In this document: positions 13,800 to 44,060 of the stretch, one piece after another
How the letters are laid out: each line of letters opens with the position of its first letter
Numbering within the stretch: position 1 is the first letter of the stretch
Source of the DNA: Aurantiacibacter odishensis
GTDB taxonomy: Bacteria; Pseudomonadota; Alphaproteobacteria; Sphingomonadales; Sphingomonadaceae
DNA: 64,000 bases
Assembly: GCF_003605195.1 (NCBI RefSeq)
Contig: NZ_QYOS01000021.1
Location: 1-64,000 of the forward strand
Direction of reading: 5' to 3'
The notes under the pieces: generated by a model
The model's database searches: none
Told to the model about the DNA's origin: nothing
The model's input: the letters and a program-made list of their open reading frames with translations, nothing else
Translations under genes and position numbers: made by a program

Positions 13800-13825
13800 C
13801 ACGCAAGGTGGTGGGCCCGGCAGGA
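13800..13825 (-). repeat. Left island boundary (attL): duplicated tRNA 3' end
   Basis: 26 bp identical to 43976-44001. Within that copy, 17 nt are the 3' end of the CAT-anticodon tRNA (through CCA into the T stem) and 9 nt are the trailer CCTTGCGTG. Beyond the 26 bp the left copy keeps only scattered matches to the tRNA (AACCC) and cannot form one. This is the usual outcome of site-specific integration into a tRNA 3' end by a tyrosine recombinase. Confidence 0.85.
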
Positions 13826-14308
13826 GCAAAACCCAGCGATATACGTGCTTTTTATTTCAACAGCTTATCATCCTGTGACGGCATATCTGTGTCACATCCT
13901 TGTGTCACACTCAACAACAAAGCCGAGAGCCACCCAGTCTCCCAAGGAGCCGAATGACCGTTTTCGGCCAACGGTTGCAGATACCCTCACGGCTAGGATT
14001 TGGTGTATAGAGGACGGTAACAGCAAAGTACGCTTTGACCGTTTGTGGGCCGTTTGCCGACAGTCTGCTTTTGGCTTTTCGACACGGATAGCTGACCACC
14101 GAATACTCTTAGCGGTTAAACTCAAAATTGGGCAAAAAGACGCTTCCACGCAGCTTTCTAGAGTGCGTGGAGGATTTCTGCTGGTTCTGCCCGGAAGGTT
14201 GTAGCCGCCTTCGTCGCGCTTCGAGACTGCAATGATGGACAACGTTGTCACAGCCCGCTAGAGCACGTTGTTGACTGCTAAAATGCAAGCATATGGTTGA
14301 GATCTAAA
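13826..14308. other. Non-coding left end of the island
   Basis: About 480 bp without a convincing gene; open frames here have no family features. It is AT-richer than the core chromosome. It holds two copies of TGTGTCACA at 13888-13896 and 13901-13909 plus an inverted GTGAC at 13875-13879, possible integrase arm sites since the same 9-mer recurs at 43913-43921. It also has a degenerate copy of the dispersed intergenic repeat near 13950-14110 and the promoter and operator of the first sulfatase at the right end. Confidence 0.6.
14238..14249. promoter_or_regulatory. LacI-type operator upstream of first sulfatase
   Basis: GACAACGTTGTC, a perfect 12-bp palindrome, 60 bp upstream of the sulfatase ATG at 14309. 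A degenerate second copy (AGCACGTTGTTG, 14262-14273) lies 12 bp further on. The same core ACAACGTTGT recurs at 21448-21461 and twice at 31524-31558, next to the LacI-family gene of this locus and its likely targets. Confidence 0.75.
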
Positions 14309-15808
14309 ATGAGAATCCTTGCTTCTATATGGCTATTCCTTTCAGCGGCTTTGCTGAGCTCTTGTATCAGCCATTCTCAGCAGACTGTCGCTGAGACACC
14401 ACGCGAAAGACCTAACGTACTCTTCATCGTCTCGGATGATCTAAACGCCCGTTTGGGAACTTATGGTGCGCAGGTCATCACACCGCATATCGACGAACTC
14501 GCCAGCAAAGGTGTGCGTTTCGACCGCGCCTATTCCCAGTATCCCTGGTGCGCGCCCAGCCGGGCCTCTTTCATGACCGGGCTGCGACCTGACACCGTCG
14601 GTGTCACCGATCTTTCCACGCCCCTTCGCGCCAAGCACCCGGACCTTGTGACAATCCCTGAACTGTTTCGGCAGAACGGCTACTTCACTGGCCGGGTCGG
14701 AAAGATCTTCCATCAGGGTGTACCGGGCGGTGTTGGCCGCCCCGGTCCTGACGATCCGCAAAGCTGGGATATCGCGATAGACCCTGCAGGTCACGATCTC
14801 GAGGTACTCGATCGTCTCGAGAACATGACGCCCGGCAATCATATTGGGTCGGCTCTTGCGTTTTACCGAGATGAAGTTGGGGATCTTGAACAGACCGACG
14901 GGATGGTCGCTTCAGAAGTTATCGATCTGATCGAGAAACACCGGGATGAACCGTTCTTCATCGCGGCTGGGTTTTACCGTCCGCACGTGCCCGAGGTTGC
15001 TCCAGCACCCTATTTCGACCTTTACGATCTAGTCGACATACCGGCTTGGTCGGTCACCGATCACACGACGCCGCCCGAGGCCAGCGCGCTGTTCATTCCG
15101 GATGACATGGGCATGACCGAACTGGAGCAACGTCGGTTCATCCAGTCCTATTACGCCGCCACAAGTTTCGTCGACGCGCAGGTCGGCCGGCTACTTGCGG
15201 CATTGGAAGAGAACGGTCTGGCAGACAATACCATCGTCGTGTTCGTCAGCGATCACGGTTTCCTTCTGGGTGAGCATGATCAATGGGCAAAGCGCCTGCT
15301 GTGGGAGCCATCTGCGCGCGTTCCGCTGGTGATCTATGCACCGGAATCGACAGGTAACGGCAGTGCATCATCGCGCCTTGTCGAACTGGTCGACCTTTTT
15401 CCCACGCTTGCCCACTTGGCCGGCTTGTCCGCTCCAGACACACTTGAGGGCCGCAGCCTGGTGCCGTTGCTGAACAAACCGACGCTGGAAGGCTGGGATC
15501 GCCCTGTCTACACGCAGATCGCAGGTGGACGCAGCGTGCGCACCGCACGGTGGCATTACGCGGAATTTGAAGCGGGTCGCAAAGGCACGCAGCTTTTCGA
15601 CCATTCCGTTGACCCCCATGAGACCCGCAATCTGGCCGGCGATCCGCGCTATGCGGATGTCGTGGGACGGCTGAGCGCTCTCCTGCCTGACGATGTTGAG
15701 GAGCGCCCAGATCCGCTGCGTTATGACCCGGAAAATGATTGTTTGCACCAGCCCGAAAGAGCCTCGATCACGCTCGGCACCCCGTGTGCCAGGTACATCG
15801 ATCCGTAA
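14309..15808 (+). CDS. S1 family sulfatase, lipoprotein (iduronate-2-sulfatase-like)
   Basis: 499 residues from ATG 14309; a TTG 12 bp upstream is possible but spoils the signal peptide. Lipobox LLSSC with Cys19 suggests an outer-membrane-anchored periplasmic protein. The alkaline-phosphatase fold has metal ligands DD at 43-44, the Cys-type active site CAPSR with Cys81 (converted to formylglycine), and VSDHGFLLGEHDQWAKR holding further metal and substrate residues. The overall pattern resembles the iduronate-2-sulfatase-like group of S1 sulfatases; the true substrate is not known. The MFS transporter begins 78 bp downstream on the same strand. An operator-like palindrome lies upstream. Confidence 0.93.
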   Translation: MRILASIWLFLSAALLSSCISHSQQTVAETPRERPNVLFIVSDDLNARLGTYGAQVITPHIDELASKGVRFDRAYSQYPWCAPSRASFMTGLRPDTVGVTDLSTPLRAKHPDLVTIPELFRQNGYFTGRVGKIFHQGVPGGVGRPGPDDPQSWDIAIDPAGHDLEVLDRLENMTPGNHIGSALAFYRDEVGDLEQTDGMVASEVIDLIEKHRDEPFFIAAGFYRPHVPEVAPAPYFDLYDLVDIPAWSVTDHTTPPEASALFIPDDMGMTELEQRRFIQSYYAATSFVDAQVGRLLAALEENGLADNTIVVFVSDHGFLLGEHDQWAKRLLWEPSARVPLVIYAPESTGNGSASSRLVELVDLFPTLAHLAGLSAPDTLEGRSLVPLLNKPTLEGWDRPVYTQIAGGRSVRTARWHYAEFEAGRKGTQLFDHSVDPHETRNLAGDPRYADVVGRLSALLPDDVEERPDPLRYDPENDCLHQPERASITLGTPCARYIDP

Positions 15809-15886
15809 GAGTCACCGAGACAAACTGCAGCACCCTCGCTAGTGCCCGATCGGGCGGGGTTGAAATACGGGCGAGGAACGCAAGCA

Positions 15887-17185
15887 ATGTATTCTGCTGG
15901 CTGGAAAGCGGTTGCACTACTGGCGTCAGTGCAAACGCTCGCCTTTTTCCACCGCACCCTCGCAACACTCCTGGCGGAGCCGATCCGACTTGAATTCGGG
16001 GTCAGCGATACGCTGATCGGGATGTTCATCGGCGCCGCATTCTCGATCAGCTTCGTGATCGCCGCTCTGCCCTTGGGACATCTGGCGGATCACGAGGACC
16101 GGTTCCGCTTGCTCGGCATTTTTGTCGCGACCTGGAGCCTGCTGACCAGTCTTGCGGCTGCTGCGTCCAGCTTCGCCGCCCTGCTACTGCTGAGGGTCGG
16201 TTCGGCAGCCGCCATGTCCGGGATAACGCCCGCAGCCGGCTCGCTCATTGCCGAACGCTACGCAGGTCCGAAGCTTGCCAAACCGATGGGAATCTACGCC
16301 AGCGGCATATATTTCGGTGTGGGAAGTTCGATGCTGATAGGCGGCGCCCTTGCCGCCGTTTTCGATCCCTTCGGCAGTTTTGCGATCGGGCCCCTGCCAT
16401 CGCTAAGCGGTTGGAAAATCATCTATCTGCTCGCAGGGTTGCCGGGGCTCATTCTCGCCGCGGTGCTGCTCAGGCAGACCGACCATGGCCGCAGGGAAAA
16501 TCGCCCTTTCTCTCGCAAGCCCCTCAAACCGGTGTTCGCCTTCCTCTTTGCGCGACCATCCAATTATCTGCGCGTGATGCTGGCTTTGACGATGCTTGTC
16601 TTCGTGGCGACCGCGGTCGGAGCCTGGCTGCCAGCACTTTTCCTGCGCAAGCATGGTTGGGCCATAGAGGACATCGGGTTCTGGGCAGGCGCGATCACGA
16701 TTGCAGCCGGACTGCTTGGCACTCTTGGTAGCGGCTACCTCGTCGAATTCATCGAGCGGATCGTGCGAACCGGCAAGCCACAGGTTCTCCTGTTGATCGT
16801 GGCGGCCACAGTTTCGGCACCGCTCGCCATCGCCTTGCCCCTCGTCGCCTCGCCATACGTGTGCCTGGCCCTGTTCTTCTGCAGATCGTTACTGGGCGGT
16901 ATCATCGTCTCGCTTGGATATGCGATCATGCTCAGTCTCGCGCCGGAGGACCAGAGGGCACGCCTTACCGCGGTGGCAGGCATTACCCTGAACCTGGTTG
17001 GCGGGGCGCTGGCACCCGTCGCAGTGGCTCTGACGACAGACTTCGGTTTTGCCGATCCGGGCAGGCTGGCGGATTCGCTGGCTATCGTCACCGCCGTCGG
17101 CTCGATTGCGGCGCTGGCCGTCCTGCTGACAGGTATCCGGAGCCTCTTCTATCCGGACATCCAGCTTGGCAGGAACGCCCGCTAA
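15887..17185 (+). CDS. MFS transporter
   Basis: 432 residues, about twelve transmembrane helices. The ATG at 15887 has GAGGA at 15873-15877; an upstream in-frame GTG at 15842 would add a non-hydrophobic leader. Loop 2-3 contains GHLADHEDRFR, the MFS signature. The sequence is nearest in feel to the spinster/hexuronate-type carriers often paired with catabolic genes in sphingomonads. Its position directly behind a sulfatase and inside the LacI regulon suggests uptake of a desulfated mono- or oligosaccharide; the substrate is inferred, not seen. Confidence 0.9.
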   Translation: MYSAGWKAVALLASVQTLAFFHRTLATLLAEPIRLEFGVSDTLIGMFIGAAFSISFVIAALPLGHLADHEDRFRLLGIFVATWSLLTSLAAAASSFAALLLLRVGSAAAMSGITPAAGSLIAERYAGPKLAKPMGIYASGIYFGVGSSMLIGGALAAVFDPFGSFAIGPLPSLSGWKIIYLLAGLPGLILAAVLLRQTDHGRRENRPFSRKPLKPVFAFLFARPSNYLRVMLALTMLVFVATAVGAWLPALFLRKHGWAIEDIGFWAGAITIAAGLLGTLGSGYLVEFIERIVRTGKPQVLLLIVAATVSAPLAIALPLVASPYVCLALFFCRSLLGGIIVSLGYAIMLSLAPEDQRARLTAVAGITLNLVGGALAPVAVALTTDFGFADPGRLADSLAIVTAVGSIAALAVLLTGIRSLFYPDIQLGRNAR

Positions 17186-17198
17186 CCGAGCTGCGGGT

Positions 17199-18596
17199 TC
17201 AATCGGCCCTGTTGCCCGGAGCGGTGCCGCAGCCCACGACCAGCGGATCGCCACCCTCAACGCTGGGCTCCAGCCCCGCACACCAGGGATAACGTTCCGG
17301 ATCGAGTGGAACCGTATCGGCATCAAGAATAGCCTGGAACCGCGCCAGCCGTGCCCGATCTTCATCGGTGAGGGATTGCCGGTCCAGCTCGCGCTCTTCG
17401 CCAAGCGAAAGGTCGAGCGCAACGAAGCGGCCATCTTCGTAGAGCTTGCGCTCGAGGTCGAAGACGAAGCGGGTCGACGGCCATCTCCACACAGGGGCGT
17501 AGTGCTGGAAGATCGTCTCGCGTGCCGACTGCGATCTGCCTTGCGCCACGGCCAGTTGGCTTACACCGTCAACATCAGCGGCCACAGGCAGAGATGCTGC
17601 GTCGGCAATGGTGGGCAGCACGTCGGTAAAGTCGAAAAGTGCGCTGCGTCGTTCGCCTGCGGGAATTCGGCCCGGCCAGCGCATCATCAGGGGAACGTGG
17701 GTACCTGTCAGCGTGGGCAGACCCTTGCCGCCCCTGATCCGCTCGCCATTACGCACCGAATGGATGCGCCGGTTGGTGCCGTTGTCGGCGGTGAAAATCA
17801 CCAGCGTGTCCTCTGTCAGGTCGAGCGCATCCAACCGGTCGAGCAGGCGCCCCACCATTCGATCCATGTATTGCATCAGCAGGCCGAAGTTGTGCTGCTC
17901 GTTCCCACCCACGCGCTCTGCCGGCGTCGCGACGAAAGGATCGTGCACCAGCACCATCGGATAGTAGAGGAAGAAAGGACGGTCGGCGTGCTCGTCCAGG
18001 AACGACAGCGCGTAGTCACTCAGGTAGTCGGGACCAAACCCCTCTTCGGGGATCAGCCAGCTACCGTCTCGCCACAGCGTCGGCCCCCAGTATCGGGAGC
18101 CCTTCTGCGGGCCGGGCTCCAGTTGCCAGAGCAGAGACTGGCCAAACCCCGCCTGTGTTGGACTGATACCGGTGCGTCCATCGAACCCATTGCCACTAAG
18201 TTGCCACTTGCCCACGATGCCGGTGGCGTAGCCGGCATCGCTGAAAAGATTGCCGAATGTCCGCTCATCAGGACCGAGGTATCCGAACGCCTCGTAATTG
18301 CTGGCGTTCTCTTTCCCGGTCATCAGGCGCGTGCGGCTGGGCGAGCACAGAGGCGTGGAGAACGCATGGTCGAACGTTACGCCCTCGCGGACGAGACGAT
18401 CGATATTGGGCGTGTCGTGTTCCCCGCCATAGGCGCGGAACGCCTCGACGCCGACATCGTCGGCAAGGATTACGACAACGTTCGGCCGCTCGCGTGAAGA
18501 ACTTTCCTGAGCGGAAGACGTGGCTGGGGCAAGCGCCGTGACGATCATCAGGACTGTCAGCGCAATGGTGCGCAGATGGGAATTGCGGATCATCAT
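17199..18596 (-). CDS. S1 family sulfatase, exported
   Basis: About 465 residues with an N-terminal signal peptide (cleavage near ATSSAQ). Active site CSPSRTRLMTG with the formylglycine cysteine at about residue 84; LADDVG and FTADNGTN are metal-binding segments. Third gene of a lacI-sulfatase-sulfatase run on the minus strand. Its start overlaps the upstream stop (TGATG), which indicates translational coupling; a GTG at 18599 is an alternative start. The C-terminus has paired cysteines (WCAGLEP and VVGCGT) that may form a disulfide. Convergent with the MFS gene, 13 bp apart. Confidence 0.93.
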   Translation of the reverse strand: MMIRNSHLRTIALTVLMIVTALAPATSSAQESSSRERPNVVVILADDVGVEAFRAYGGEHDTPNIDRLVREGVTFDHAFSTPLCSPSRTRLMTGKENASNYEAFGYLGPDERTFGNLFSDAGYATGIVGKWQLSGNGFDGRTGISPTQAGFGQSLLWQLEPGPQKGSRYWGPTLWRDGSWLIPEEGFGPDYLSDYALSFLDEHADRPFFLYYPMVLVHDPFVATPAERVGGNEQHNFGLLMQYMDRMVGRLLDRLDALDLTEDTLVIFTADNGTNRRIHSVRNGERIRGGKGLPTLTGTHVPLMMRWPGRIPAGERRSALFDFTDVLPTIADAASLPVAADVDGVSQLAVAQGRSQSARETIFQHYAPVWRWPSTRFVFDLERKLYEDGRFVALDLSLGEERELDRQSLTDEDRARLARFQAILDADTVPLDPERYPWCAGLEPSVEGGDPLVVGCGTAPGNRAD

Positions 18597-20302
18597 CACT
18601 CCAGCCCCTCACTGGCCCCTTCCACGCTGTTGCTGCCGGTGCCCAGCACTGGAAATTCGGAAAGGGCTTCCCCTCGTGCATGCGCGGCTGCCTTGGCTGG
18701 GCTGTCAGGGAAAATATCGTCGAGGCGGTCCAGGCGGTTCGGCTCGACGTACCAGTCAGCAGGGAAATCGGCGGCACGGGTGCCGCCTTCCATGCGTCGC
18801 ACGCTGCCGCGCGAGTGCCGCCGTGTGTAGGGAATGACGTGACGACCGTCGCGGTCGGCCAGCTGTTCGAACAAGGCCTGACGCAGTTCGATCTTGGCGT
18901 CGAGGTAGTCCGGATCGTCGATGAGGTTGTTCATCTCCTCCGGGTCTTCCGACAGGTCGTACAACTCCTCGATATCGTAGACGCCGTAGTACTGGATATA
19001 CTTCAGGTTGTCGCGCACGATGGCGAAAGTTCCCGGTGTCATCGGGAAGGTCCATTCCCAGTAGTATTCGTAGATGAAGTCGTCGGGCTGCCACTCGGCT
19101 GTTGTCGTCGCGCCGGTCATCAGCGGCCAGGCATTGTGCCCCTCGAACTGTGGCGGCAATTCCAGGCCTGCGAGGGATAGGAACGTGGGCGCAAAGTCGA
19201 GATTGCGGATGCGGCCGGGGTTCACCACACCTGCTGGCACCGCGCCCGGAGCGTAGACGAGCATCGGGACCTGAACCGACGGCTGGTAGGCGTTGCGCTT
19301 GTCGATCAGGCCGTGATCGCCGATCAGATAGCCATTGTCCGAGGTAAAGACGATCAAGGTGTCGTCTTCCAGATCGTTCGCCTCCAGATAGGCGAGGATT
19401 CGCGCCACACTGTCGTCCACGGAAGACAGGGTCGAATAATAGTAACGCAGGTACTCCTGCATCGACATGTCGGAATTGTAGAAGAAGTCGAGACCGTGCC
19501 AGGTGTTGCGCTGGTTATAGACCCAAAGTGGCTTGCCTTCGTAATTCTCGGGCGTGTTGGCGGCACTGTCGGGAAGGTCGAAGACGACGTTATCATACTG
19601 TCCCGCATGACGCGGAGCCGGCAACGGATCGGAATGGACGGCCTTGTGGCTGAGATAGAGCATGAACGGTCGGTCGGGGTCGCGCTCGCTCTCAAGCCAG
19701 TTCATCGCATAGTCGGTCAGCTCATCGGTGATGTAGCCGCGCTGCGGGACCACCTCTCCATCGACGTTGTACGTCGTTTCGCGTCCTGGTGGGGCATCGG
19801 GATCGGGGTAGTAGCTTCCCTGCCCCTTGAAGCTGACCCACTTGTCAAACCCGGCCCGCGGTTCGTCAGAGGCCGCGCCCATGTGCCACTTGCCGATAAA
19901 GGCCGTGCTGTAGCCCGCCTGTTGCAGGTAGGCCGGGAAAAATGTCAGGCCTTCCTCGCTGGAATCGTTGTTGTCCACGATACCGTGATTGCGCGCTGTC
20001 ATTCCGGTTAGGATCGTTGCGCGACTGGGGCTGCAAAGCGATGACGTGACCAGCGTATTGGGCATGTAGGTGCCGCCGCGCGCCAGGCGATCCAGTGCCG
20101 GCGTCTGCAGTTCCGGCTGAAGGAAACCCATCCCGTCGAAACGCAAGTCGTCGACAAGGATGAAGATGATGTTGCGCGGCTGGTTCTGGGCGACGGAAAC
20201 ATCTGCGGGCCCTGCCTGCTCGGCAGAGAGCGGATGGGCACACGCGCCTGTTAGCAGCGCCAGCCCTGTGAAAAGGGCCTTGGCTCTCGGTGCAAATTTC
20301 AT
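18596..20302 (-). CDS. S1 family sulfatase, lipoprotein
   Basis: 568 residues from ATG 20302 (GAGGA upstream); earlier in-frame codons overlap the LacI gene and do not extend a signal peptide. Lipobox LTGAC with Cys21. Catalytic motif LCSPSRATILTG with Cys90; LVDDLRFD and FTSDNGYLIGDHGL match metal-binding regions. Two long aromatic-rich inserts (YEYYWEWTFP and the region near QRNTWHGLDFFYN) probably line the substrate cleft. It resembles the N-acetylglucosamine-6-sulfatase/choline-sulfatase-like arm of S1, but the specificity is uncertain. It lies 41 bp downstream of lacI and overlaps the next sulfatase. Confidence 0.93.
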   Translation of the reverse strand: MKFAPRAKALFTGLALLTGACAHPLSAEQAGPADVSVAQNQPRNIIFILVDDLRFDGMGFLQPELQTPALDRLARGGTYMPNTLVTSSLCSPSRATILTGMTARNHGIVDNNDSSEEGLTFFPAYLQQAGYSTAFIGKWHMGAASDEPRAGFDKWVSFKGQGSYYPDPDAPPGRETTYNVDGEVVPQRGYITDELTDYAMNWLESERDPDRPFMLYLSHKAVHSDPLPAPRHAGQYDNVVFDLPDSAANTPENYEGKPLWVYNQRNTWHGLDFFYNSDMSMQEYLRYYYSTLSSVDDSVARILAYLEANDLEDDTLIVFTSDNGYLIGDHGLIDKRNAYQPSVQVPMLVYAPGAVPAGVVNPGRIRNLDFAPTFLSLAGLELPPQFEGHNAWPLMTGATTTAEWQPDDFIYEYYWEWTFPMTPGTFAIVRDNLKYIQYYGVYDIEELYDLSEDPEEMNNLIDDPDYLDAKIELRQALFEQLADRDGRHVIPYTRRHSRGSVRRMEGGTRAADFPADWYVEPNRLDRLDDIFPDSPAKAAAHARGEALSEFPVLGTGSNSVEGASEGLE

Positions 20303-20342
20303 GACGTCCTCTAGTATTCCTGTGTTGGGCTGGCCGCCGCGT

Positions 20343-21392
20343 TCAGATCGCCGCAAAGGAAGCGCGTTCGACGAAGCGATAGGGATGGTTCACAACCTTG
20401 CCTTCGGCCATGTCGCGCATGGCCACCGAGTTGATAAGCTCGGTGGCGGCGTCCCGGCTGATCTCGATCGTCGGTTGCCGGATGGTGGTCAGGCGCGGGA
20501 AGCACTGGGACGCGACAGCAAGGTCGCCGAAGCCAATCACGCTGAGGTCCCCCGGAATATCGAGGCCGATACTCTTGGCATAGGCGATGACACCGGCGGC
20601 CATCTCGTCGTTGGCGGCGAATATTGCGGTCGGTCGCCAGTCGGAACTCTCATTCAGGAATTGCGCTGCAGCTGCCCATCCGCTGTCGAAGGTGAAGTTC
20701 CCGTCAAGGTCACGCAGTTCGACTTCTGGCTCCTCGGAAAGCGTACGCGAAAAGCTTTGCCGGCGCAGGTGGTGAGAACCGTGGTTAGGAGGCCCTGCGA
20801 TATACCCCACCTTGCGATGATTGTGCCGCAGGATGTAACTGGCCACGTCTGCGCCTGCCGCCTCGTTGTCGAAGCCGATGGAAATCGTCCGCTCGTGCGC
20901 CTTGCCCGGGTTTATGCGCACGCATGGCATGCCCTTGTTGACCAGATGGTCGACCAGCCAGAGACGATCGCACAACGGGGGGACGAGGACGAGTCCGTCC
21001 AGCGTCATATCTTCCAGCAGCGCGTCGATAGCTTCCGCTCCGGCCTCGATCTGGTCGTTAGTGATGGGCTCTATCAGCAAGTGATAGCCTGCCCGACCGC
21101 ACGACTGGAGAAGACCGGTAATGACGTCGGTGATATATGTCGGGATCGAGCGGTCCGAGCCCGGTTCGATATATCCGGTGAGCGGCCCGAGGATAAGCCC
21201 GATGGTGTAGGACTTGCCGCCCCGCAAGAGACTGGCGGCACGGTTGGGCCTGTAGCCCAGCGCCGTCATCGAAATTTCGACCTTTTCGCGAAGGTCCTCC
21301 CCAACGCTCGGGTTCTTGTTGATGACGCGCGATACCGTCTTGAACGAAACGCCTGCGTGCTTCGCAATATCCTTGATAGTGACTTTTGCCAT
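20343..21392 (-). CDS. LacI family transcriptional regulator of the sulfatase locus
   Basis: 349 residues. The N-terminal helix-turn-helix (TIKDIAKHAGVSFKTVSRVI) and hinge helix (YRPNRAASLLRGG) precede a periplasmic-binding-protein-like sensor domain. It is divergent from a sulfatase and upstream of two others on its own strand. The palindrome AGACAACGTTGTCT in the 128-bp divergent gap, and relatives at two other promoters, fit a LacI operator with the usual central CG. It is likely a repressor released by a sugar from the glycan; the effector is unknown. Confidence 0.95.
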   Translation of the reverse strand: MAKVTIKDIAKHAGVSFKTVSRVINKNPSVGEDLREKVEISMTALGYRPNRAASLLRGGKSYTIGLILGPLTGYIEPGSDRSIPTYITDVITGLLQSCGRAGYHLLIEPITNDQIEAGAEAIDALLEDMTLDGLVLVPPLCDRLWLVDHLVNKGMPCVRINPGKAHERTISIGFDNEAAGADVASYILRHNHRKVGYIAGPPNHGSHHLRRQSFSRTLSEEPEVELRDLDGNFTFDSGWAAAAQFLNESSDWRPTAIFAANDEMAAGVIAYAKSIGLDIPGDLSVIGFGDLAVASQCFPRLTTIRQPTIEISRDAATELINSVAMRDMAEGKVVNHPYRFVERASFAAI

Positions 21393-21447
21393 CGGCTAGC
21401 CTCTCCCGCTAAAGTCCGCAGTTTCTATCCTGCTTTGTATTGACTGG

Positions 21448-21461
21448 AGACAACGTTGTCT
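21448..21461. promoter_or_regulatory. LacI-type operator in the divergent lacI/sulfatase promoter
   Basis: AGACAACGTTGTCT, a perfect 14-bp palindrome, 56 bp upstream of lacI (start 21392) and 60 bp upstream of the sulfatase at 21521. Its position would allow one site to control both directions, including autoregulation. Confidence 0.8.
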
Positions 21462-21520
21462 ATAGCCAATCGGGCAAAAGTTGTCGTTGCGACATGGGAC
21501 GACATTGAGAGGATCGCGAG

Positions 21521-22930
21521 ATGACCTGGTATCGAGATACTACGAGACTTTGCAGGAGCGGAGGATATGTCCTCGGCTTTCTGCTGGCAATGCAGACTTC
21601 GGGCGCAGCAGCTTCGGCACAAGAAGCAGAGCACCCGCCGCGTCCCAATTTCGTCGTGATTTTCGTCGACGACCTTGGCTGGGGCGACCTGTCGTCTTCC
21701 GGCGCGGAATACATAGAGACGCCGCACATCGATTCCATCGGAGCGGACGGGCTTGTCATGTCGCAGTTCTACGCCGGGTCAAACGTGTGCTCGCCAAGCC
21801 GCGCGGCGCTGTTGACCGGTCGATATGCGCCGCGATCCGGCATGCAGTTCGTGACGAGGCCTCATTCCGATTGGGGTCTTCCCGGTGAGGAAATTACCAT
21901 TGCCGAGATGCTACGCGATGCGGGTTATGCCACAGGCATGGTCGGCAAATGGCATCTCGGCCACCGACTGGAATATTGGCCCACCCAGCAAGGCTTCGAA
22001 AGCTTTCTTGGCGTCCCCTACTCCAACGATCTGGAGCCGTTCAGCCTCTATCGCGGAACCGAAATGGTCGAACGCGAAATCGATCAGACGACACTGGAGG
22101 ATACCTACGCGACGGAAGCCGAGCGCTTCATCGCCTCTCACGCTAGCGAACCATTCTTCCTCTACTATGCCACCAACTTCCCCCACCGCCCGCTTTTCTT
22201 CCCGCCCGAGAACACTGGCCGCAGCGGACCCGCTGGCGATTATGGCGACACCATCGAAACACTAGACGATGCGGTCGGACGCATTCTCGCGGCTCTCGAC
22301 GAGAATGGTCTGCGAGACAACACGGTAGTCATCTTCACAAGCGACAACGGTCCATGGTTCCAAGGCAGCAGCGGCCCCTTCAAGGGCCACAAGGGCGATA
22401 CCAACGAAGGCGGTTACCGCGTGCCGTTCCTGTTGCGCTGGCCTGCTGGCGTGGCTCCCGGAACCCATAACGACGCGATGAGCATGGGAATCGACATGCT
22501 CCCTACCTTCGCCCGGCTCGCTGGGGCGCAGGTTCCGCAGGACCGCATCATCGACGGACGTGAAGTGACTGCGATGTGGACGAGTGGTGCACCCAGCCCC
22601 CACGAAATACTCTATTTCATCAACAACAACGGCCTCGCTGCTGTCCGTAGCCCACGTTTCAAACTGCTGCTGAGCGAGTACTACCGCGCCTCGCATATAG
22701 ATTTCCGCCGCTACACCGCCCCCAAGCTGTTCGACATGCTGGCCGACCCGCAGGAGCGCTATGACATCGCCAACAGGTACCCGGACGAGTACGCCCGTTT
22801 GCTGGCGCTGGCAGAGGCGATGAGCGCCGAAATCGCACCAATGGCGGTGGATCGTGGCGGAATTTATCCCGAGGATCCCGCAGCCATTCTTGGACCGGTC
22901 CTCGAAGGCGGTGAATTGTATGGACATTAA
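21521..22930 (+). CDS. S1 family arylsulfatase-like sulfatase, exported
   Basis: 469 residues; the ATG at 21521 is preceded by GAGAGGA. Signal peptide ending near AAASAQ. This is the most arylsulfatase-A-like of the five: VDDLGWGD metal site, VCSPSRAALLTGRY with Cys90, GKWHLGH, and FTSDNGPW. First gene of a tight plus-strand run sulfatase-FGE-GH3-MFS. The FGE gene starts 8 bp before this gene ends, so enzyme and activator are translationally coupled. Confidence 0.95.
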   Translation: MTWYRDTTRLCRSGGYVLGFLLAMQTSGAAASAQEAEHPPRPNFVVIFVDDLGWGDLSSSGAEYIETPHIDSIGADGLVMSQFYAGSNVCSPSRAALLTGRYAPRSGMQFVTRPHSDWGLPGEEITIAEMLRDAGYATGMVGKWHLGHRLEYWPTQQGFESFLGVPYSNDLEPFSLYRGTEMVEREIDQTTLEDTYATEAERFIASHASEPFFLYYATNFPHRPLFFPPENTGRSGPAGDYGDTIETLDDAVGRILAALDENGLRDNTVVIFTSDNGPWFQGSSGPFKGHKGDTNEGGYRVPFLLRWPAGVAPGTHNDAMSMGIDMLPTFARLAGAQVPQDRIIDGREVTAMWTSGAPSPHEILYFINNNGLAAVRSPRFKLLLSEYYRASHIDFRRYTAPKLFDMLADPQERYDIANRYPDEYARLLALAEAMSAEIAPMAVDRGGIYPEDPAAILGPVLEGGELYGH

Positions 22931-23927
22931 TAAGACTATCGGCCTCACCGCTCTGGCCGCGTGCCTGGCAGTTGCGGGGTGCGAGGGCGAAACCGACACG
23001 ACCACTGCTCAGAGCGAGCAGGTTGCCCGCACCTGCGCAGCGATCGGAGACACGCCAGTCAGGCTTGAAGGCGGCACTTTTGCAATGGGCCAGGCTGAGG
23101 TTTACGCCGAGGAAGGCCCTGTTCGGCAGACGACTGTAGACGGTTTCTGGATCGATCCGCACGAGGTTACAAACAGGCAGTTTGCGGCGTTCGTTGAAGC
23201 CACCGACTATGTAACCCTGGCAGAGAAGCCTGTCGATCCAGCGGCCTTCGGTGTATCTGAAGAGCAGATCCCGCCAGAATTGCTGCTGCCAGGCTCAGCA
23301 GTCTTCACCCCGCCCGAAAGGCCGTCGAACCGCTATTCCGACTGGTGGAAATATGTGCCGGGCGCGAACTGGAAGCGGCCATATGGTCCAGGCGGTCCCG
23401 AAGCACAGCCCGATGAGCCGGTGGTTCACCTGGGCTGGGAGGACATGCAGGCCTATGCCCTATGGAAAGGCGGGCGAATGCCAACCGAAGCAGAATGGGA
23501 GTATGCCGCATCAGCCGGACAGCCTGCCACCACCGAGCAGCCGGAGGAAGCCAACAGCTGGCAAGGCGTGTTCCCCGCCGTCAACCGTGAGACGGACGGC
23601 TTCAGGGGCATCGCTCCCGTCGGCTGTTATGCGCCCAATCCGAATGGGCTTTACGACATGGTCGGCAACGTTTGGGAAGTAACGGCGGACCTGTTCCGCC
23701 CCGGACACGATCCGGCGGATACAGACAATCCGCGCGGCCCAAGCGAGAACCAGGCCTATGACCCGCTGAACCCCGGCTTCCCTAGCCGCGTGATGAAAGG
23801 CGGTAGCTACCTGTGCGCTCCGAACTATTGCCAGCGCTATCGTCCCGCGTCCCGCCAAGGCCGCGACCCCGGTATGGGAGCGAGCAATGTCGGCTTCCGC
23901 CTCGCTTACGATATGCCGCCAGCCTGA
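22920..23927 (+). CDS. Formylglycine-generating enzyme (SUMF1 family), predicted lipoprotein
   Basis: 335 residues from ATG 22920, overlapping the sulfatase by 11 bp. The signal peptide ends in a lipobox (LAVAGC, Cys21). The FGE fold runs from residue about 47 (VRLEGGTFAMG, DEVxN-like HEVTNRQFAAF, GGRMPTEAEWEYAA, LYDMVGNVWE) to GFRLAYD. The copper-binding active site is intact: GGSYLCAPNYCQRYR gives Cys299 and Cys304 with the spacing of known FGEs. FGE oxidises the CxPSR cysteine of sulfatases to formylglycine. Family members acting on Sec-exported sulfatases are normally cytoplasmic, so the export signal is notable. Confidence 0.93.
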   Translation: MDINKTIGLTALAACLAVAGCEGETDTTTAQSEQVARTCAAIGDTPVRLEGGTFAMGQAEVYAEEGPVRQTTVDGFWIDPHEVTNRQFAAFVEATDYVTLAEKPVDPAAFGVSEEQIPPELLLPGSAVFTPPERPSNRYSDWWKYVPGANWKRPYGPGGPEAQPDEPVVHLGWEDMQAYALWKGGRMPTEAEWEYAASAGQPATTEQPEEANSWQGVFPAVNRETDGFRGIAPVGCYAPNPNGLYDMVGNVWEVTADLFRPGHDPADTDNPRGPSENQAYDPLNPGFPSRVMKGGSYLCAPNYCQRYRPASRQGRDPGMGASNVGFRLAYDMPPA

Positions 23928-23965
23928 TGCTGGCCCCAACCCTTTCTGAAATACAGGAATCTTTC

Positions 23966-25945: not shown

Positions 25946-25991
25946 TCGTCAGCCTCCCTCGGTTCTGCCCCTCGTTTCGAAAGATGCCCTC

Positions 25992-27335: not shown

Positions 27336-27379
27336 TGGCGCTCCCCGCCCAACAAGAGATTGAAGGCTAGCCTAGGCTC

Positions 27380-31470: not shown

Positions 31471-31513
31471 AACTCTCTCCCTGTGCTTTTCGCGATTGGG
31501 CGCGCGATTTACG

Positions 31514-31568
31514 GCTGCCTTAGAGACAACGTTGCCTCAGGTCAATACAACGTTGTCTCTAAGGCAGC
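31514..31568. promoter_or_regulatory. 21-bp perfect inverted repeat holding two LacI operators
   Basis: Arms 31514-31534 and 31548-31568 are perfect reverse complements, with a 13-nt spacer. Each arm includes an ACAACGTTG operator core: AGACAACGTTGCCT at 31524-31537 and ATACAACGTTGTCT at 31545-31558, centred 21 bp apart, two helical turns. It lies 44 bp upstream of the TonB receptor ATG, where a promoter should be. Confidence 0.75.
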
Positions 31569-31570
31569 TA

Positions 31571-32183
31571 AAAGATTGCCGGAAACTTGCTAGACCGATG
31601 ATCAAAGGCGAATCTCGCTTGTCGAAAATCGCGCTATGCGGACATCATCAACAGTGGATCATCCGGTTTGGCATCCGTGAATGTCCGCAACAAAGGCGTG
31701 AAGGATAGAACGCGAATGACCGAGATGAGGGCGCAAGGCTGCCGTCCCGCCAATGTCCGCAATCGGGTCGTTTGCCGACAGGCAGGTTTTGGGCCGTGAA
31801 CAGGGCAAGGCTGCCACTCCACTTCTGGGCATAGAGGAAAATGAACGGCGGCAAGCGACCGCCCGCGACATCATCAACAGCGAACTTCAGCACCACCGCG
31901 CTGCCGAGAAGCGCCAGCGCGATCAAAGCTGCCCAGACAGACTTGCGCGGGGGGAGACGAGAGTGAAAACGGGAAGCGAAGTCCCACCGTTGCCCGGAAA
32001 GTATGGTCTCAAGCCGATTGAGCCGTTCAGGCATTGGTTCTTCTCCTCCACCTCGCCCGATCCAAGCGCCTGATTTTGAAACGCGTTCCCCTCAAATCTC
32101 TAGAGATGAGAATATGGCACTCTGCAAGCACGGCAGACAATCAAGAACTCCCGCCAGAACGGATGAGCTGGATTCAGTAAAGG
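31571..32183. other. Non-coding stretch with repeats and a gene remnant
   Basis: About 610 bp between the receptor promoter and the LuxR-type gene. It contains a short TGTCCGCAA motif at 31682-31690, a dispersed-repeat head (TGTCCGCAATCGGGTCG...) at 31754-31775, and the membrane-sensor remnant listed at 31825-32034. The segment 32040-32183 has no recognisable feature. Confidence 0.5.
31825..32034 (-). pseudogene. N-terminal remnant of a DUF4118-type membrane sensor kinase
   Basis: On the minus strand, about 70 codons from ATG 32034 read as a cytoplasmic leader (RLNRLETILSGQRWDF) and a hydrophobic helix (WAALIALALLGSAVVLKFAVD), then GGRLPPFIFLYAQ. This resembles the start of DUF4118-containing sensor histidine kinases. 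The match ends abruptly where the dispersed repeat begins (about 31820), and nothing kinase-like follows. The frame stays open to 31648 but the tail is repeat sequence. Identification rests on my memory of the family pattern. Confidence 0.45.
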
Positions 32184-33260: not shown

Positions 33261-33398
33261 GGCACGGTGTCCCGAAAAGCGATGGCTCAACCAATATCAC
33301 ATAAATTTTGCCACCGCATCGGACATCTGTCCGATGCGCCGGCTGATGATGATCTTCATTCTCGGGAAGTCGACAAGATAGCCCGAAAGGAATCTCGC

Positions 33399-35313: not shown

Positions 35314-37284
35314 CTACAGGCCAAAGGGATAGAGGTCATCCGCACTTCCTCTGCGAGGCTCGCGCTCTGCAAGCGGCTGCAAGGCATGAGTTGTGTCAAA
35401 CCAGCAATAGGCATCGAACTGTTCCGGAAGGACTGCATCGGTGTAGTGGCTCCACCTCTCTGTCTCGGGCCGATAGATCACTCCGATGAACCGTTCCAGC
35501 CGGGGCTTCGCGAGGCGCCGGGCAACTGCCGACGCGTCCTTGAAATCGAGCAGCATCGGTGACTTCCCGCTATCGTGACAAAGCCTCTCGTAGCTGTCGC
35601 GGCGCGAGGGATTGATCGTCATCGTCTCGTGCTCGCCGTCCCAGTCGCTTGCGGCAGTTACTGTCCCGTCGTGTGTCCCGAAGCCGATGAGAGCGACCTC
35701 GTCGCCCCATTTCTCGCGCGCAAGCTGGCCGATGTTGTGCTCCGAACGCACCCGCCCCATTTCGGTCGCCCGGGCATCGCCGATATGGCTGTTGTGCGCC
35801 CAGACCAAGGCCTTGGCATCGGGTCCGCGTTGCTCGAGCAGGTATTCCAGCGTTTCCGCCATATGGCTGTCCCGCAGGTTCCAGCTCTCGGCACCGCCGT
35901 AATACATGATGCGGTAATAACGCTCTGCCGAGGCGACCAGCCGCGCGTTCATGGCTGCATCGAAGCTCGCGCCATCGTTCTGGAGCGCTTTTTCCAGTAG
36001 CTCCCGGCATTGCTCGATGACGGGTTGCTCGCATTCGGCAAAGCCCGGTCGCATGGCAGCCCGGCCGTAGGTGGCAGGGTCCGCCTGCCACGGAGTAAGG
36101 CATCCGTAGCGCTCGCGTGCAACTTCGGCCGCCTCCGGATCATTCTCCTCCAGATAGGCGAGGATGGCATCGATCGACGCGTGCATGTTGTAGATGTCGA
36201 GGCCATAGAAGCCGGCCTGCATTTCAGGAGATTTGCCGGCATTGATCGTCTTCAGGTCCCGCAGGAGATCCGGCATGACGGTGTTGCGCCACATCCAGGT
36301 GGGGAAGCGCTGGAACGGCTCTTGGCCGCTCCCGCTTGCCGGTTTGTCCCGGATCAGGCGGTCGTAGGCGGCGGCATCGGGCCAGTCGCCCTCCACCGCG
36401 ACGATGGTGAAGCCATGCTTCTCGACGAAACGGCGCGTAATCGCGGCGCGGGCGCGGTAGAACTCTTCCGTCCCATGGCTTGCCTCCCCCAGCATCACCA
36501 CGCGCCTATCCGCAAAGCGATCGAAAGCGGCGGCGAAACCGGGATCGTCAATATCCTTCAGCTCTTCGCCTGCTTCAGCCAGGAGTTTCGGCGTGGTGAG
36601 ATTGGACGAAGCATCGTGATTGCTGGCTGCGCGCGAACCGTCCTCGGCCACGGAACCGGGGAGGAGCGGCACGAAGCGCACGGGCGCGATCTCGCGTGTT
36701 TCCCATTCGTCTGTCTGCTTCCGGGTGATGCACGTGAGTTGCTGGAGACCCTCGTCGCCCACGGGGATGATCAGGCGTCCCCCTATCGCAAGTTGCCGCT
36801 TCAGTGCGGCGGGAACCTCCTCGATACGGGCCGCGACCAGTATGGCGTCGAAAGGTGCCTCGTCCTCGAAGCCATTCATACCGTCGCCGGCGATAATGGT
36901 GCAGTTGTCGTAACCGAGTGCACTGATCCTTTCCCGCGCAGTGCGGGCGAGCTTTTCGAAACGTTCGACGGCGAACACCTCAGCCGCGATGCGCGACATG
37001 ACGGCAGCGGCGTAGCCGGAGCCCGCCCCCACTTCCAGAACCCGGTGGGTGGGTCCGATTTCCGCCGCATCGATCATCGAGGCGACGATAAAGGGCTGCG
37101 AGATCGTCTGGTCTTCACCGATAGGCAGAGGACCGTCGTCGTAGGCGAATTCGGAAAGGTTGTCGGGCACGAAATCTTCCCTCGGCACCGTGCGGAACGC
37201 CTCCAGAATGGCGGTATCGGTTATTCCGCGAGCCTCTATTTGGCTTTCGACCATCCGGTTCCGGCGAATTTTTGCATTGTCCAT
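35314..37284 (-). CDS. Protein-L-isoaspartate methyltransferase / erythromycin esterase fusion
   Basis: 656 residues; GGAAGGA precedes ATG 37284. Residues 1-210 are a PCMT domain with the SAM-binding LEVGAGSGYAAAVM and CTIIAGDGMNG, a family that repairs isoaspartyl residues. Residues about 235-645 are an erythromycin-esterase-like domain: MLGEASHGTEEFYRARAAI with the catalytic-type His, VAVEGDWPD, and VWAHNSHIGDA. Most bacterial members of the esterase family are not proven macrolide esterases. The two genes are often neighbours; here they are one polypeptide, so a damage-response role is plausible. mntP-like and fumC-fragment genes follow upstream on the same strand. Confidence 0.92.
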   Translation of the reverse strand: MDNAKIRRNRMVESQIEARGITDTAILEAFRTVPREDFVPDNLSEFAYDDGPLPIGEDQTISQPFIVASMIDAAEIGPTHRVLEVGAGSGYAAAVMSRIAAEVFAVERFEKLARTARERISALGYDNCTIIAGDGMNGFEDEAPFDAILVAARIEEVPAALKRQLAIGGRLIIPVGDEGLQQLTCITRKQTDEWETREIAPVRFVPLLPGSVAEDGSRAASNHDASSNLTTPKLLAEAGEELKDIDDPGFAAAFDRFADRRVVMLGEASHGTEEFYRARAAITRRFVEKHGFTIVAVEGDWPDAAAYDRLIRDKPASGSGQEPFQRFPTWMWRNTVMPDLLRDLKTINAGKSPEMQAGFYGLDIYNMHASIDAILAYLEENDPEAAEVARERYGCLTPWQADPATYGRAAMRPGFAECEQPVIEQCRELLEKALQNDGASFDAAMNARLVASAERYYRIMYYGGAESWNLRDSHMAETLEYLLEQRGPDAKALVWAHNSHIGDARATEMGRVRSEHNIGQLAREKWGDEVALIGFGTHDGTVTAASDWDGEHETMTINPSRRDSYERLCHDSGKSPMLLDFKDASAVARRLAKPRLERFIGVIYRPETERWSHYTDAVLPEQFDAYCWFDTTHALQPLAEREPRRGSADDLYPFGL

Positions 37285-38324: not shown

Positions 38325-38340
38325 TTGACTTCCTTCTCAA

Positions 38341-38429
38341 CGTCCGCAATCGGGTCGTTAGCTGCCCGTCTGCTCTTGGCATATCGCTAGCTCGGTGAAA
38401 GCGTCATCAGATGAGTGGAACGCGGACAT
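38341..38429 (+). repeat. Dispersed intergenic repeat copy at the fumC break point
   Basis: 89 bp from CGTCCGCAATCGGGTCGTTA to GAGTGGAACGCGGACAT; the ends are inverted (TCCGC/GCGGA). It stands exactly where the fumarase fragment loses its upstream part. Confidence 0.65.
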
Positions 38430-38477: not shown

Positions 38478-38900
38478 TTAGTGCTCGGTTTGAAGGATGG
38501 TTACGTGGTCATGGCTGCGATACCGTGACCTTCGTTGCCGAAACCGAGTTGAGGTGATCGGCCTATGCTTCCACCGATATGCCCCGAAGCCACATAGAGC
38601 CTCGATTTGATCGAAGTTATGATCGACTTCGCTGAGACTCAGCCTCGCACGCCTGACATATTGACGAACCGTCACCTCCTCAATCTCATCATCGATCAGG
38701 CTCGCGAGGCTCTCCAGCGTCAGTCCGCGCCCTTTTGCACGAACAAGAGCCTGCACGACCTCATACTGGGTCCTCGCCAATTCTACAGATTCGCCGTTGA
38801 GGTAGATTAATCCATCCTCGTACAGCGCGACGTTTCCATAGGTCAGAGGCCCGGATTGGCGCAGCTGATAACCACAGTTCGGACAGTTATGAAAATTCAT
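38478..38900 (-). CDS. Zinc-ribbon plus winged-helix DNA-binding protein
   Basis: 140 residues. The N-terminal CPNCGYQL is half of a zinc ribbon; I find no second CxxC pair, only one more cysteine in ALCGFG. The middle is an OmpR/PhoB-type winged helix (LARTQYEVVQALVRAKGRGLTLESL then EEVTVRQYVRRARLSLSEV) without a receiver domain. The C-terminus is Arg/His-rich. It looks like a small accessory transcription factor of mobile or accessory regions; the target is unknown. Confidence 0.7.
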   Translation of the reverse strand: MNFHNCPNCGYQLRQSGPLTYGNVALYEDGLIYLNGESVELARTQYEVVQALVRAKGRGLTLESLASLIDDEIEEVTVRQYVRRARLSLSEVDHNFDQIEALCGFGAYRWKHRPITSTRFRQRRSRYRSHDHVTILQTEH

Positions 38901-40319: not shown

Positions 40320-40321
40320 GA

Positions 40322-43225: not shown

Positions 43226-43239
43226 GCTTGGTTACGAAC

Positions 43240-43324
43240 TGTCCGCAATCGGGTCGCTTGCAGCCTATCCGCTCTTGTCAGGCTTTGAGCCAGCCGCAAG
43301 GGCTAATCTTGGGTGGGAAGCGGC
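43240..43324 (+). repeat. Dispersed intergenic repeat copy
   Basis: 85 bp, TGTCCGCAATCGGGTCGCTT at the left and CTTGGGTGGGAAGCGG at the right, between the anti-sigma gene and the integrase remnant. The remaining bases of the 43226-43438 gap show nothing recognisable. Confidence 0.6.
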
Positions 43325-43438: not shown

Positions 43439-43906
43439 TCAATCGAATAGAGCCAATTGCCCCTGGCTGCCGCTTGCTTCACCTTCGGCCCGCGCAACAA
43501 GGTTCGCCTCCTCCTCAATCGAGGCTTTGGCCTCATTGACCGTCTGCTCCTCGGACCAATCGGGTTCACGAAAAGCTTCGCGCCCTGCCCACCAATTCGC
43601 CACGAGGGACTCTAGTGCCTTCCTGCCAAGGTCTTCGATCCTTCCCCTCGCGAGCGCTGTCTGCATAGCGGACGATTTCTGCAACTAATCACGAAGGGCA
43701 TCAAAACCCGCCTCAATTTCGGCTAGCTTTAGAGGATAGCGCCGTATCGCCTCGCGCTTCTCCTTTGTACCGAGGCTTAGGCGAATCGATTGTCGTTGAT
43801 CGAGATGTGCGAGGTCCGCTGGCACGCGCTTCCGCAGTTGCTACACGCCATCCTTGCCGCGCTTTATCAATCCGGGAAAGTTCGCCATTTCGTCATCCAT
43901 ATGTCA
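43439..43906 (-). pseudogene. Tyrosine recombinase (integrase) remnant, N-terminal part only
   Basis: One continuous minus-strand frame from about 43897 (ATGGATGACGAAATGGCG) reads NFPGLIKRGKDGV, TAG, QLRKRVPADLAHLDQRQSIR, LSLGTKEKREAIRRYPLKLAEI, EAGFDALRD, TAG, then LQKSSAMQTALARGR onwards to a TGA at 43439. This is the arm-binding/DUF6538 N-terminus of tyrosine integrases (pattern: kRVPadL, sirlSLGTkdkrEA, A-E-dA-f--lr). Two amber stops interrupt it, and the core-binding and R-H-R-Y catalytic domains are absent. It is adjacent to the tRNA 3' end, the expected place for an island integrase. Confidence 0.8.
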
Positions 43907-43975
43907 CGCATATGTGTCACAGTTCGACGAGAAAAGCCTTGAATCTACAATAATCTACGCTTTTCTGCGGCATTG

Positions 43976-44001
43976 CACGCAAGGTGGTGGGCCCGGCAGG
44001 A
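43976..44001 (-). repeat. Right island boundary (attR): tRNA 3' end
   Basis: 26 bp identical to 13800-13825, here overlapping the 3' end of the intact tRNA, so the element brought or kept a functional tRNA end. Distance between the copies is about 30.2 kb. Confidence 0.85.
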
Positions 44002-44060
44002 TTCGAACCCGCGACCTAGCCGTTATGAGCGGCCAGCTCTAACCGCTGAGCTACAGGCCC
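43985..44060 (-). tRNA. tRNA with CAT anticodon, probably tRNA-Ile2
   Basis: 76-nt cloverleaf on the minus strand with an encoded CCA. The acceptor GGGCCTG pairs with CGGGCCC (one G-U). The anticodon arm GGCCG/CGGCT has the loop CTCATAA, anticodon CAT. The stem pattern suggests the isoleucine-2 tRNA whose C34 is changed to lysidine rather than elongator Met, but only a tRNA identity tool would settle it. Leader and trailer are complementary over 11 bp (44067-44077 with 43974-43984). Confidence 0.93.

What the first reader, a model, noticed from the sequence alone, without database searches (positions are those of the whole stretch)
13800..44060. A 30-kb island integrated at a tRNA 3' end, with the boundary repeats still visible
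Seen: a 26-bp exact direct repeat at 13800-13825 and 43976-44001, the second copy spanning the last 17 nt of an intact tRNA and 9 nt of trailer; the DNA between carries a coherent catabolic locus and an integrase remnant next to the tRNA. Known: tyrosine integrases of islands and prophages recombine within tRNA 3' ends and leave exactly such repeats. Inference: the thermonuclease gene and the M28 peptidase gene were originally neighbours flanking this tRNA.
Basis: partly seen in the sequence, partly recalled or inferred. Interest (0 to 1): 0.85.

Follow-up and report, generated by a model that had tools for sequence, protein, structure and literature searches.

The report
Mosaic gene island at isoleucine tRNA
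A marine bacterium carries a 30-kilobase block of acquired genes, mainly for removing sulfate from sugars, at the end of a tRNA gene; close relatives have the same spot empty, and the block looks stitched together from pieces that also sit elsewhere in related genomes.

Summary
The 26-bp direct repeat is real and unique: two exact copies in the 3.19-Mb assembly. The island reading passes its own test: six named Aurantiacibacter loci have M28 peptidase - tRNA - thermonuclease with one repeat and no insert; of 22 other genus genomes with the M28 gene, 17 have the thermonuclease beside the tRNA; of 40 genus genomes only this one has two repeat cores. The tRNA is best read as tRNA-Ile2(CAT), not Met. 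The integrase is a dead N-terminal remnant; its two best relatives in a family scan sit at the same tRNA between duplicated ends. Refinement: the cargo is probably a mosaic. The 17.7-kb sulfatase locus occurs as a syntenic block elsewhere in five relatives, 91% identical in DNA to one whose flank proteins match at a median of 59%. A DUF4331/ECF-sigma block also wanders. Four clear and one weak same-direction copies of a rare ~40-bp repeat punctuate the island, four of the five at or near block ends; whether they act is open. New member of a known kind.

The parts
13406..13792 (+). thermonuclease (SNase) gene, left flank; neighbour of the tRNA in empty sites
   Evidence: PF00565; adjacent to the tRNA in relatives
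13800..13825 (+). attL: displaced copy of the tRNA 3' end plus trailer
   Evidence: 26-bp exact repeat, 2 copies in the genome; single in empty sites
14047..14073 (+). R1: weak copy of the dispersed repeat; homology of block A to G024 starts inside it (14053)
   Evidence: weak by itself (13.1 bits; E 0.043, 0.072); break point
14053..31743 (.). block A: sulfatase catabolic locus, syntenic in five relatives at other places
   Evidence: 91.4% DNA identity to G024 over 17.7 kb; synteny
14297..15808 (+). sulfatase
   Evidence: PF00884; CAPSR motif
15842..17185 (+). MFS transporter
   Evidence: PF07690
17199..18599 (-). sulfatase
   Evidence: PF00884; CSPSR
18596..20356 (-). sulfatase
   Evidence: PF00884; CSPSR
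20343..21392 (-). LacI-family regulator
   Evidence: PF00356 + Peripla_BP_3
21521..22930 (+). sulfatase
   Evidence: PF00884; CSPSR
22854..23927 (+). formylglycine-generating-type enzyme (sulfatase maturation)
   Evidence: PF03781; Cys pair 321/326
23813..25945 (+). GH3 glycoside hydrolase
   Evidence: PF00933
25833..27335 (+). MFS transporter
   Evidence: PF07690
27380..29071 (-). sulfatase
   Evidence: PF00884; CAPSR
29182..31470 (-). TonB-dependent receptor
   Evidence: PF07715
14237..14250 (.). probable LacI operator upstream of the first sulfatase gene
   Evidence: ACAACGTTGT: 3 sites in the whole genome, all in the island; conserved in G024, G011, G010, G037, not in G036
21448..21461 (.). 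probable LacI operator between lacI and a divergent sulfatase gene
31524..31558 (.). double probable LacI operator upstream of the TonB receptor gene
31752..31791 (+). R2: dispersed repeat, 8 bp beyond the end of block A homology
32184..33290 (-). LuxR-type regulator
   Evidence: PF00196
34636..34675 (+). R3: dispersed repeat; no joint shown here
35314..37284 (-). PCMT - erythromycin-esterase-family fusion protein
   Evidence: PF01135 + PF05139
37398..37946 (-). MntP-type manganese efflux pump
   Evidence: PF02659
37959..38324 (-). C-terminal fragment of class II fumarase (model positions 338-457 of 458), cut off 15 bp from R4
38339..38379 (+). R4: dispersed repeat
   Evidence: a copy lies about 210 bp from block B in G039
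38478..38900 (-). winged-helix regulator
   Evidence: PF00486
38931..43225 (.). block B: TPR protein, two DUF4331 proteins, ECF sigma, anti-sigma; same five genes at other places in relatives
43239..43277 (+). R5: dispersed repeat, 13 bp after the end of block B
43442..43900 (-). remnant of a DUF6538 tyrosine-type integrase: N-terminal part only, 2 stop codons, no catalytic domain found
43976..44001 (+). attR: repeat copy reaching into the intact tRNA
43985..44060 (-). tRNA gene with CAT anticodon, best read as tRNA-Ile2; intact
44138..45556 (-). M28 peptidase gene, right flank
   Evidence: PF04389

Best explanation
A tyrosine-integrase element entered the 3' end of a tRNA-Ile2(CAT) gene of an Aurantiacibacter chromosome by recombination within the 26-bp identity. 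It restored the tRNA with its own copy and displaced the old 3' end to 13800-13825. The integrase has since lost its catalytic part and gained stop codons, so the insert is fixed. The dead island then became a landing ground, or was already a mosaic when it arrived: a 17.7-kb self-contained sulfated-glycan locus (sulfatases, their maturation enzyme, transporters and their own LacI switch), a DUF4331/ECF-sigma block and the DNA between them were joined, with same-direction copies of a rare ~40-bp repeat at or near several of the joints. Shown: ends, empty site, tRNA identity by closest match, integrase relatives at the same tRNA, both blocks elsewhere, transfer of block A between lineages, repeat positions. 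Inferred: order of events, LacI regulation, substrate, and any role of the repeats.
For: Unique exact repeat. Empty sites; only G000 of 40 genus genomes has two copies of the 16-mer, 36 have one, 3 none. Integrase remnant with DUF6538; an intact relative in G199 (45% identity over 141 residues, DUF6538 + Phage_integrase) starts 86 bp from the same tRNA, against 85 bp here, with a second tRNA-end copy 9.7 kb away; the G148 relative (DUF6538; no Phage_integrase hit) likewise with 11.2 kb. Block A syntenic in G010, G011, G024, G036, G037 away from this tRNA. Block A proteins 92-98% identical to G024 for 10 of 11 (TonB 70%), while 14 window-flank ORFs with a match in 39 kb around G024's EttA gene have a median of 58.8%, highest 90% (EttA). 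Block B in G011, G031, G034, G039 with flanks that share only one 33%-identical pair. Operator motif: 3 of 3 genomic sites inside the island, and no site in 726 kb elsewhere in the genome for a looser form.
Against: GC contrast is small, about 3.5 points. G005 has the tRNA without tRNA-Pro nearby and a single copy, so rearrangements other than islands happen here. The integrase that made these ends is not proven to be the remnant. The genes between the two blocks (31.8-38.9 kb) were not searched for in whole genomes, so their history is open. The repeats are absent from most block borders in relatives: 11 of 20 borders gave no hit and only 2 of 20 a clear one. The genome is a draft in 25 contigs; no reads were checked for mis-assembly.
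Confidence: 0.87

Rival explanations
1. One intact 30-kb element carrying all of this cargo integrated once; blocks elsewhere in relatives are later escapes or independent islands.
For: One pair of clean ends and one integrase remnant in the usual place. The cargo is coherent in block A.
Against: Blocks A and B are found separately in relatives with different neighbours, neither at this tRNA. Block A's nearest relative is G024, block B's nearest by ECF sigma is G039 (95%). fumC is truncated beside R4. The two other elements at this tRNA are 9.7 and 11.2 kb with other genes.
Confidence: 0.1
2. Not an insertion: the segment is ancestral and relatives lost it, the repeat being a partial tRNA duplication.
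For: A partial tRNA copy at 13800 is all that the left end shows by itself.
Against: The empty arrangement is found in 17 of 22 other genus genomes with the M28 gene, including the closest ones by that gene; deletion would have to recur with precise ends.
Confidence: 0.02
3. About the dispersed repeats only: they are ordinary intergenic (REP-like or terminator-like) sequences, and lie near the joints because joints fall between genes.
For: The copies lie between the genes recognised by Pfam. One pair forms a strong 17-bp-stem hairpin just after the EttA stop codon (z -5.35), like a terminator; the other five stretches folded do not beat their shuffles clearly (z -1.33 to 0.75). Weak relatives occur in other genera. 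Most block borders in relatives lack it.
Against: Very uneven: six copies at E<1e-8 in this 64-kb window against one hit at 2.6e-7 and two near 0.01 in 726 kb of the same genome. The left homology break of block A lies inside the repeat. Both hits in the 411 kb of relatives' DNA are at or about 210 bp from a block border.
Confidence: 0.6

Closest known systems
tRNA-gene genomic islands with a tyrosine integrase, as mapped in Islander (PMC4383910; abstract and section list seen)
   Same: Intact tRNA at one end, displaced tRNA 3' fragment at the other, integrase gene beside the tRNA (here a remnant), empty site in relatives
   Different: [quoted passage not shown] cargo is a mosaic of blocks that occur elsewhere
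Composite genomic islands such as CGI48 at tRNA-Trp of Shewanella putrefaciens (PMC8978831; abstract and section list seen)
   Same: A tRNA island that contains a formerly separate mobile piece
   Different: In CGI48 the inner island has its own att sites and is excised by integrase and excisionase; here I found no second integrase among the ORFs tested, only short repeats near joints
Sulfatase-rich polysaccharide utilisation loci of marine bacteria (PMC10233909; 12 passages seen)
   Same: Clustered sulfatases with carbohydrate-active enzyme and uptake genes
   Different: No SusD-type hit among the ORFs tested, a single GH3 enzyme, an in-locus FGE-type gene, a LacI regulator; in an alphaproteobacterium
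Integron cassette arrays (recalled)
   Same: Same-direction repeats between gene blocks
   Different: No second integrase among the ORFs tested; the core lacks the GTTRRRY site (motif recalled); blocks are 3-18 kb rather than about 1 kb (size recalled)

Membership tests
tRNA-gene genomic island (structural definition, relics included) | Intact tRNA at one end and displaced 3' fragment at the other as a direct repeat | tested here: met
tRNA-gene genomic island (structural definition, relics included) | Empty site with a single copy in relatives | tested here: met
tRNA-gene genomic island (structural definition, relics included) | Integrase gene or remnant beside the tRNA, with relatives that use the same tRNA | tested here: met
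Islander-type island / active integrative element | Encodes an intact integrase | tested here: not met
   N-terminal part only, 2 stops, no credible C-terminal match in 42.9-44.0 kb; no Phage_integrase hit in the 24 other island ORFs tested
ICE or IME | Relaxase or conjugation genes | tested here: inconclusive
   none among the 24 island ORFs given to Pfam, but small ORFs were not all tested
Prophage or phage satellite | Phage structural, packaging or replication genes | tested here: inconclusive
   no such Pfam hit in the 24 island ORFs tested; PHROGs was run on the integrase remnant only, no hit
Composite genomic island (CGI48 type) | Inner element with its own integrase and att sites | tested here: not met
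   no second integrase among the ORFs tested; apart from the 26-bp pair, the direct repeats found inside are short or diverged
Integron | attC-type sites and an IntI integrase | tested here: not met
   no such integrase hit in the ORFs tested; core repeat read by eye against the recalled attC motif

The most novel reading that the evidence does not exclude
The ~40-bp repeat is the joining site of an undescribed way of moving large gene blocks: blocks of 3-18 kb, each travelling with a copy at one end, are strung head to tail in the same direction inside a dead tRNA island, and the blocks pass between Aurantiacibacter lineages through recombination at these repeats.
Probability: 0.12. Interest if true: 0.75.

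Novelty: new member of a known kind. Interest (0 to 1): 0.4.

Why it matters
It is a clean, testable case of how a complete sulfated-glycan catabolic locus, with its own maturation enzyme and probable switch, moves among marine Erythrobacteraceae: insertion ends, empty sites and a 91%-identical copy in a more distant species are all in hand. It also points to tRNA-Ile2(CAT) as an integration site used at least three times in this family, and it raises a concrete question about short repeats at the joints of mosaic islands.

Tried and rejected
Deletion in relatives instead of insertion here: rejected on the distribution of empty sites. A third copy of the tRNA end between thermonuclease and tRNA-Pro: none except a 20-nt similarity inside tRNA-Pro itself. 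Block A on plasmids: one partial match, 8% of the query at 75%, on a Novosphingobium plasmid, in megablast mode. One copy of the dispersed repeat (R4) against plasmids and the exact 19-nt core against viral contigs: none. An insertion at tRNA-Thr in G010, beside its block A: no second copy of the tRNA-Thr end. Hairpin as a general property of the repeat: only 1 of 6 stretches folds clearly better than shuffles. Repeat elements as universal border marks: not supported, 11 of 20 borders in relatives without any hit. The GH3 search in 298 family genomes first suggested that the sulfatase locus was unique; that sample held only 7 genus genomes including the window's own, and the sulfatase family scan over 40 genus genomes corrected it. 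Closest solved structures of GH3 and of 4 of the 5 sulfatases do not settle the substrate. A phage-collection search with the tRNA gave only tRNA-Met labels and did not help with its identity. Literature: no held paper with Aurantiacibacter + genomic island, none with genomic island + tRNA + sulfatase + Sphingomonadales, none with DUF6538 + integrase, none with polysaccharide utilization loci + integrase + tRNA + genomic island + sulfatase; some searches listed 1, 12 and 12 papers, of which I opened three. Tetranucleotide profile, read-level checks, a structure prediction and a tree were not done.
Full report
Observation. The 26-bp direct repeat stands at 13800-13825 and 43976-44001 and has no other exact copy in the 3,188,505-bp assembly. 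Shuffles of the window give no match at all. The tRNA lies on the minus strand at 43985-44060, so its 3' end faces the segment, the geometry expected of a tRNA island. Beyond the 26 bp the left copy diverges (89% over 35 nt).

Which tRNA. ARAGORN labels the gene Met from its CAT anticodon. It is 84.2% identical over its full length to a plasmid tRNA that RefSeq annotates as tRNA-Ile, and that gene also has the CAT anticodon and is also labelled Met by ARAGORN. It is therefore best read as tRNA-Ile2, the AUA reader (decoding role recalled).

Empty site. Searching the M28 peptidase in 40 genus genomes including the window's own gave full-length relatives in 22 others (places with E<1e-100). In 17 of these 22 the thermonuclease lies next to the tRNA; in 3 the tRNA is directly followed by tRNA-Pro in the same direction without the thermonuclease; in 1 the tRNA pair is inverted; in 1 (G005) no tRNA-Pro is near. 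In these the junction reads thermonuclease - single repeat - tRNA; the 26 bp is exact in 4 of 6 (L034-L037), one base changed in L038, and carries a small insertion in L039. The 16-bp core is present in 37 of 40 genus genomes, once in 36 and twice only in the window's genome. Insertion in this lineage is the simplest history.

Integrase. The remnant at 43442-43900 (-) matches DUF6538 (E 3.8e-12), has two stop codons and no credible C-terminal match. In 298 family genomes, own included, its protein finds 10 others. The two best, G199 and G148, lie directly beside the same tRNA, and both genomes carry a second same-strand copy of the 16-bp tRNA end, 9.7 and 11.2 kb away. The G199 protein has both DUF6538 and Phage_integrase domains and starts 86 bp from its tRNA, against 85 bp here. 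For G148 Pfam found DUF6538 but no Phage_integrase hit. The other eight hits are weaker; I fetched seven, of which five lie beside other tRNAs (Glu three times, Leu, Lys) and two have no tRNA in the stretch; none of the eight genomes has a second copy of the 16-mer. Among genomes without an integrase hit, G176 and G285 also show two same-strand copies and G066, G108 and G263 one in each direction; G285's are 88 bp apart at a contig start, and the others were not examined. 110 of the 298 genomes lack the exact 16-mer, so this scan does not see their sites.

Block A. Pfam finds five sulfatases, an FGE-type enzyme, GH3, two MFS transporters, a LacI regulator and a TonB-dependent receptor between 14.3 and 31.5 kb. 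All five sulfatases keep the C-x-P-S-R motif and the FGE-type protein a Cys pair five apart (meaning recalled). A sulfatase-family scan of 40 genus genomes showed a similar cluster elsewhere; the loci fetched for G010, G011, G024, G036 and G037 hold the block in the same order. Gaps: the second MFS gene gave no hit in G010 and G011, and in G036 the first sulfatase gave no hit and a second is in pieces. Four further loci fetched (G009, G017, G022, G033) hold only weaker or rearranged matches. In the five, the block is on another contig than the tRNA-Ile2 core (four genomes) or about 1.1 Mb away (G036). DNA identity to G024 is 91.4% over 17.7 kb, to G010 75-81%, to G011 77-83%. In contrast EttA DNA identity to G024 is 87.1% and to G010 and G011 90.8% and 90.1%, and 14 window-flank ORFs of 150 aa or more, picked mechanically, with a match in 39 kb around G024's EttA have a median identity of 58.8%, highest 90. 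The ranking of relatives is thus reversed between block A and the chromosome, which means horizontal transfer. TonB is the exception: 70% to G024 but 91% to G010, so the block is itself recombinant. Fetched flanks of the block do not match among these genomes, except the left flanks of G036 and G037; one G036 flank gene is 34% identical to part of a window flank gene.

Probable switch. ACAACGTTGT occurs three times in the whole genome, all in the island and each before an operon start (the reversed control pattern has two sites). A looser form has no site in 726 kb of the same genome outside the window and recurs at the matching promoters of block A in all five relatives, except that G036 lacks the first. 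Control by the island LacI is an inference.

Block B. TPR, two DUF4331, ECF sigma and anti-sigma genes (38.9-43.2 kb) recur together in G011, G031, G034 and G039, and in altered order in G005; a weaker TPR hit in G016 was not examined. Flanking genes in the first four share nothing but one 33%-identical pair. Identity is uneven: the ECF sigma is 95% identical to G039 while its neighbours are 74-87%.

Joints. A ~40-bp repeat core lies in the same direction at 14047 (weak), 31752, 34636, 38339 and 43239, and again at 51.48-51.87 kb outside the island. Block A homology to G024 begins at 14053, inside the first copy, and ends at 31743, 8 bp before the second. Block B ends 13 bp before the fifth; the fourth lies about 550 bp from its other end, with one gene between, and G039 has a copy about 210 bp from the matching end. 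A fumarase C-terminal fragment begins 15 bp from the fourth. No joint is shown at the third. The profile was built from six window copies, so scores of those copies are circular, but its scarcity elsewhere is not: one hit at 2.6e-7 and two at about 0.01 in 726 kb of the same genome; none in 200 kb of G039 and 199 kb of G024 contig C7 samples; two weak ones in 71.5 kb of fetched stretches of G024's contig C6 (4 kb of them overlapping), one of which is the block A border; and six weak ones, best 8e-5, in 1.91 Mb from 105 loci, mostly of other genera. Against a general role: of 20 block borders in relatives 11 gave no hit and only 2 a clear one; 8 of 2000 random segments from the same pool scored 13 bits or more, some being the same copies. 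The elements in G199 and G148 lack it. I treat it as an open lead.

Conclusion. It is a decayed tRNA-Ile2 island whose contents are probably a mosaic, the main piece being a horizontally moved sulfatase locus. tRNA islands and composite islands are known kinds (abstracts of PMC4383910 and PMC8978831); I found no held paper on this one.

Noticed in passing
window 13131-13207 and 43985-44060; L033-L112: The tRNA-Ile2(CAT)/tRNA-Pro(tgg) pair is on the strand of the M28 gene in most Aurantiacibacter loci and on the opposite strand in the loci of other genera where both tRNAs were seen, an inversion of the pair.
   Followed up: partly
window 13406-13792: The thermonuclease gene itself sits between the two tRNAs in 17 of 22 genus genomes but is absent in four others with the tRNAs about 20-40 bp apart, so it may be an older gain at the same tRNA end.
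   Followed up: no
window 51483-51531: Two repeat cores head to head form a 17-bp-stem hairpin just after the EttA stop codon, folding far better than shuffles; about 960 bp after EttA do not match the relatives compared.
   Followed up: partly
window 41859-42443: ECF sigma gene 95% identical to G039 while the other block B genes are 74-87%, suggesting a local exchange.
   Followed up: no
window 29182-31470: TonB-dependent receptor 91% identical to G010 but 70% to G024, the reverse of the rest of block A.
   Followed up: no
window 35314-37284: Fusion of a protein-isoaspartate methyltransferase domain to an erythromycin-esterase-family domain.
   Followed up: no
L154:423-10137: Element at the same tRNA in G199 carries two reverse-transcriptase-domain genes and a resolvase besides the integrase.
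   Followed up: no
L236:1576-12823: Element at the same tRNA in G148 carries a resolvase, IS21-type and other transposition genes and a weak reverse-transcriptase-like match besides the integrase relative.
   Followed up: no
L339 (G000 contig C3) 10395-18235: A second sulfatase/GH3/FGE locus in the same genome, with a stop inside the GH3 match and the sulfatase match in two pieces, and a weak repeat core nearby.
   Followed up: no
L163 (G005): tRNA-Ile2 without tRNA-Pro in the 19 kb fetched downstream and with a single repeat copy; looks like a rearrangement rather than an island with both ends.
   Followed up: partly
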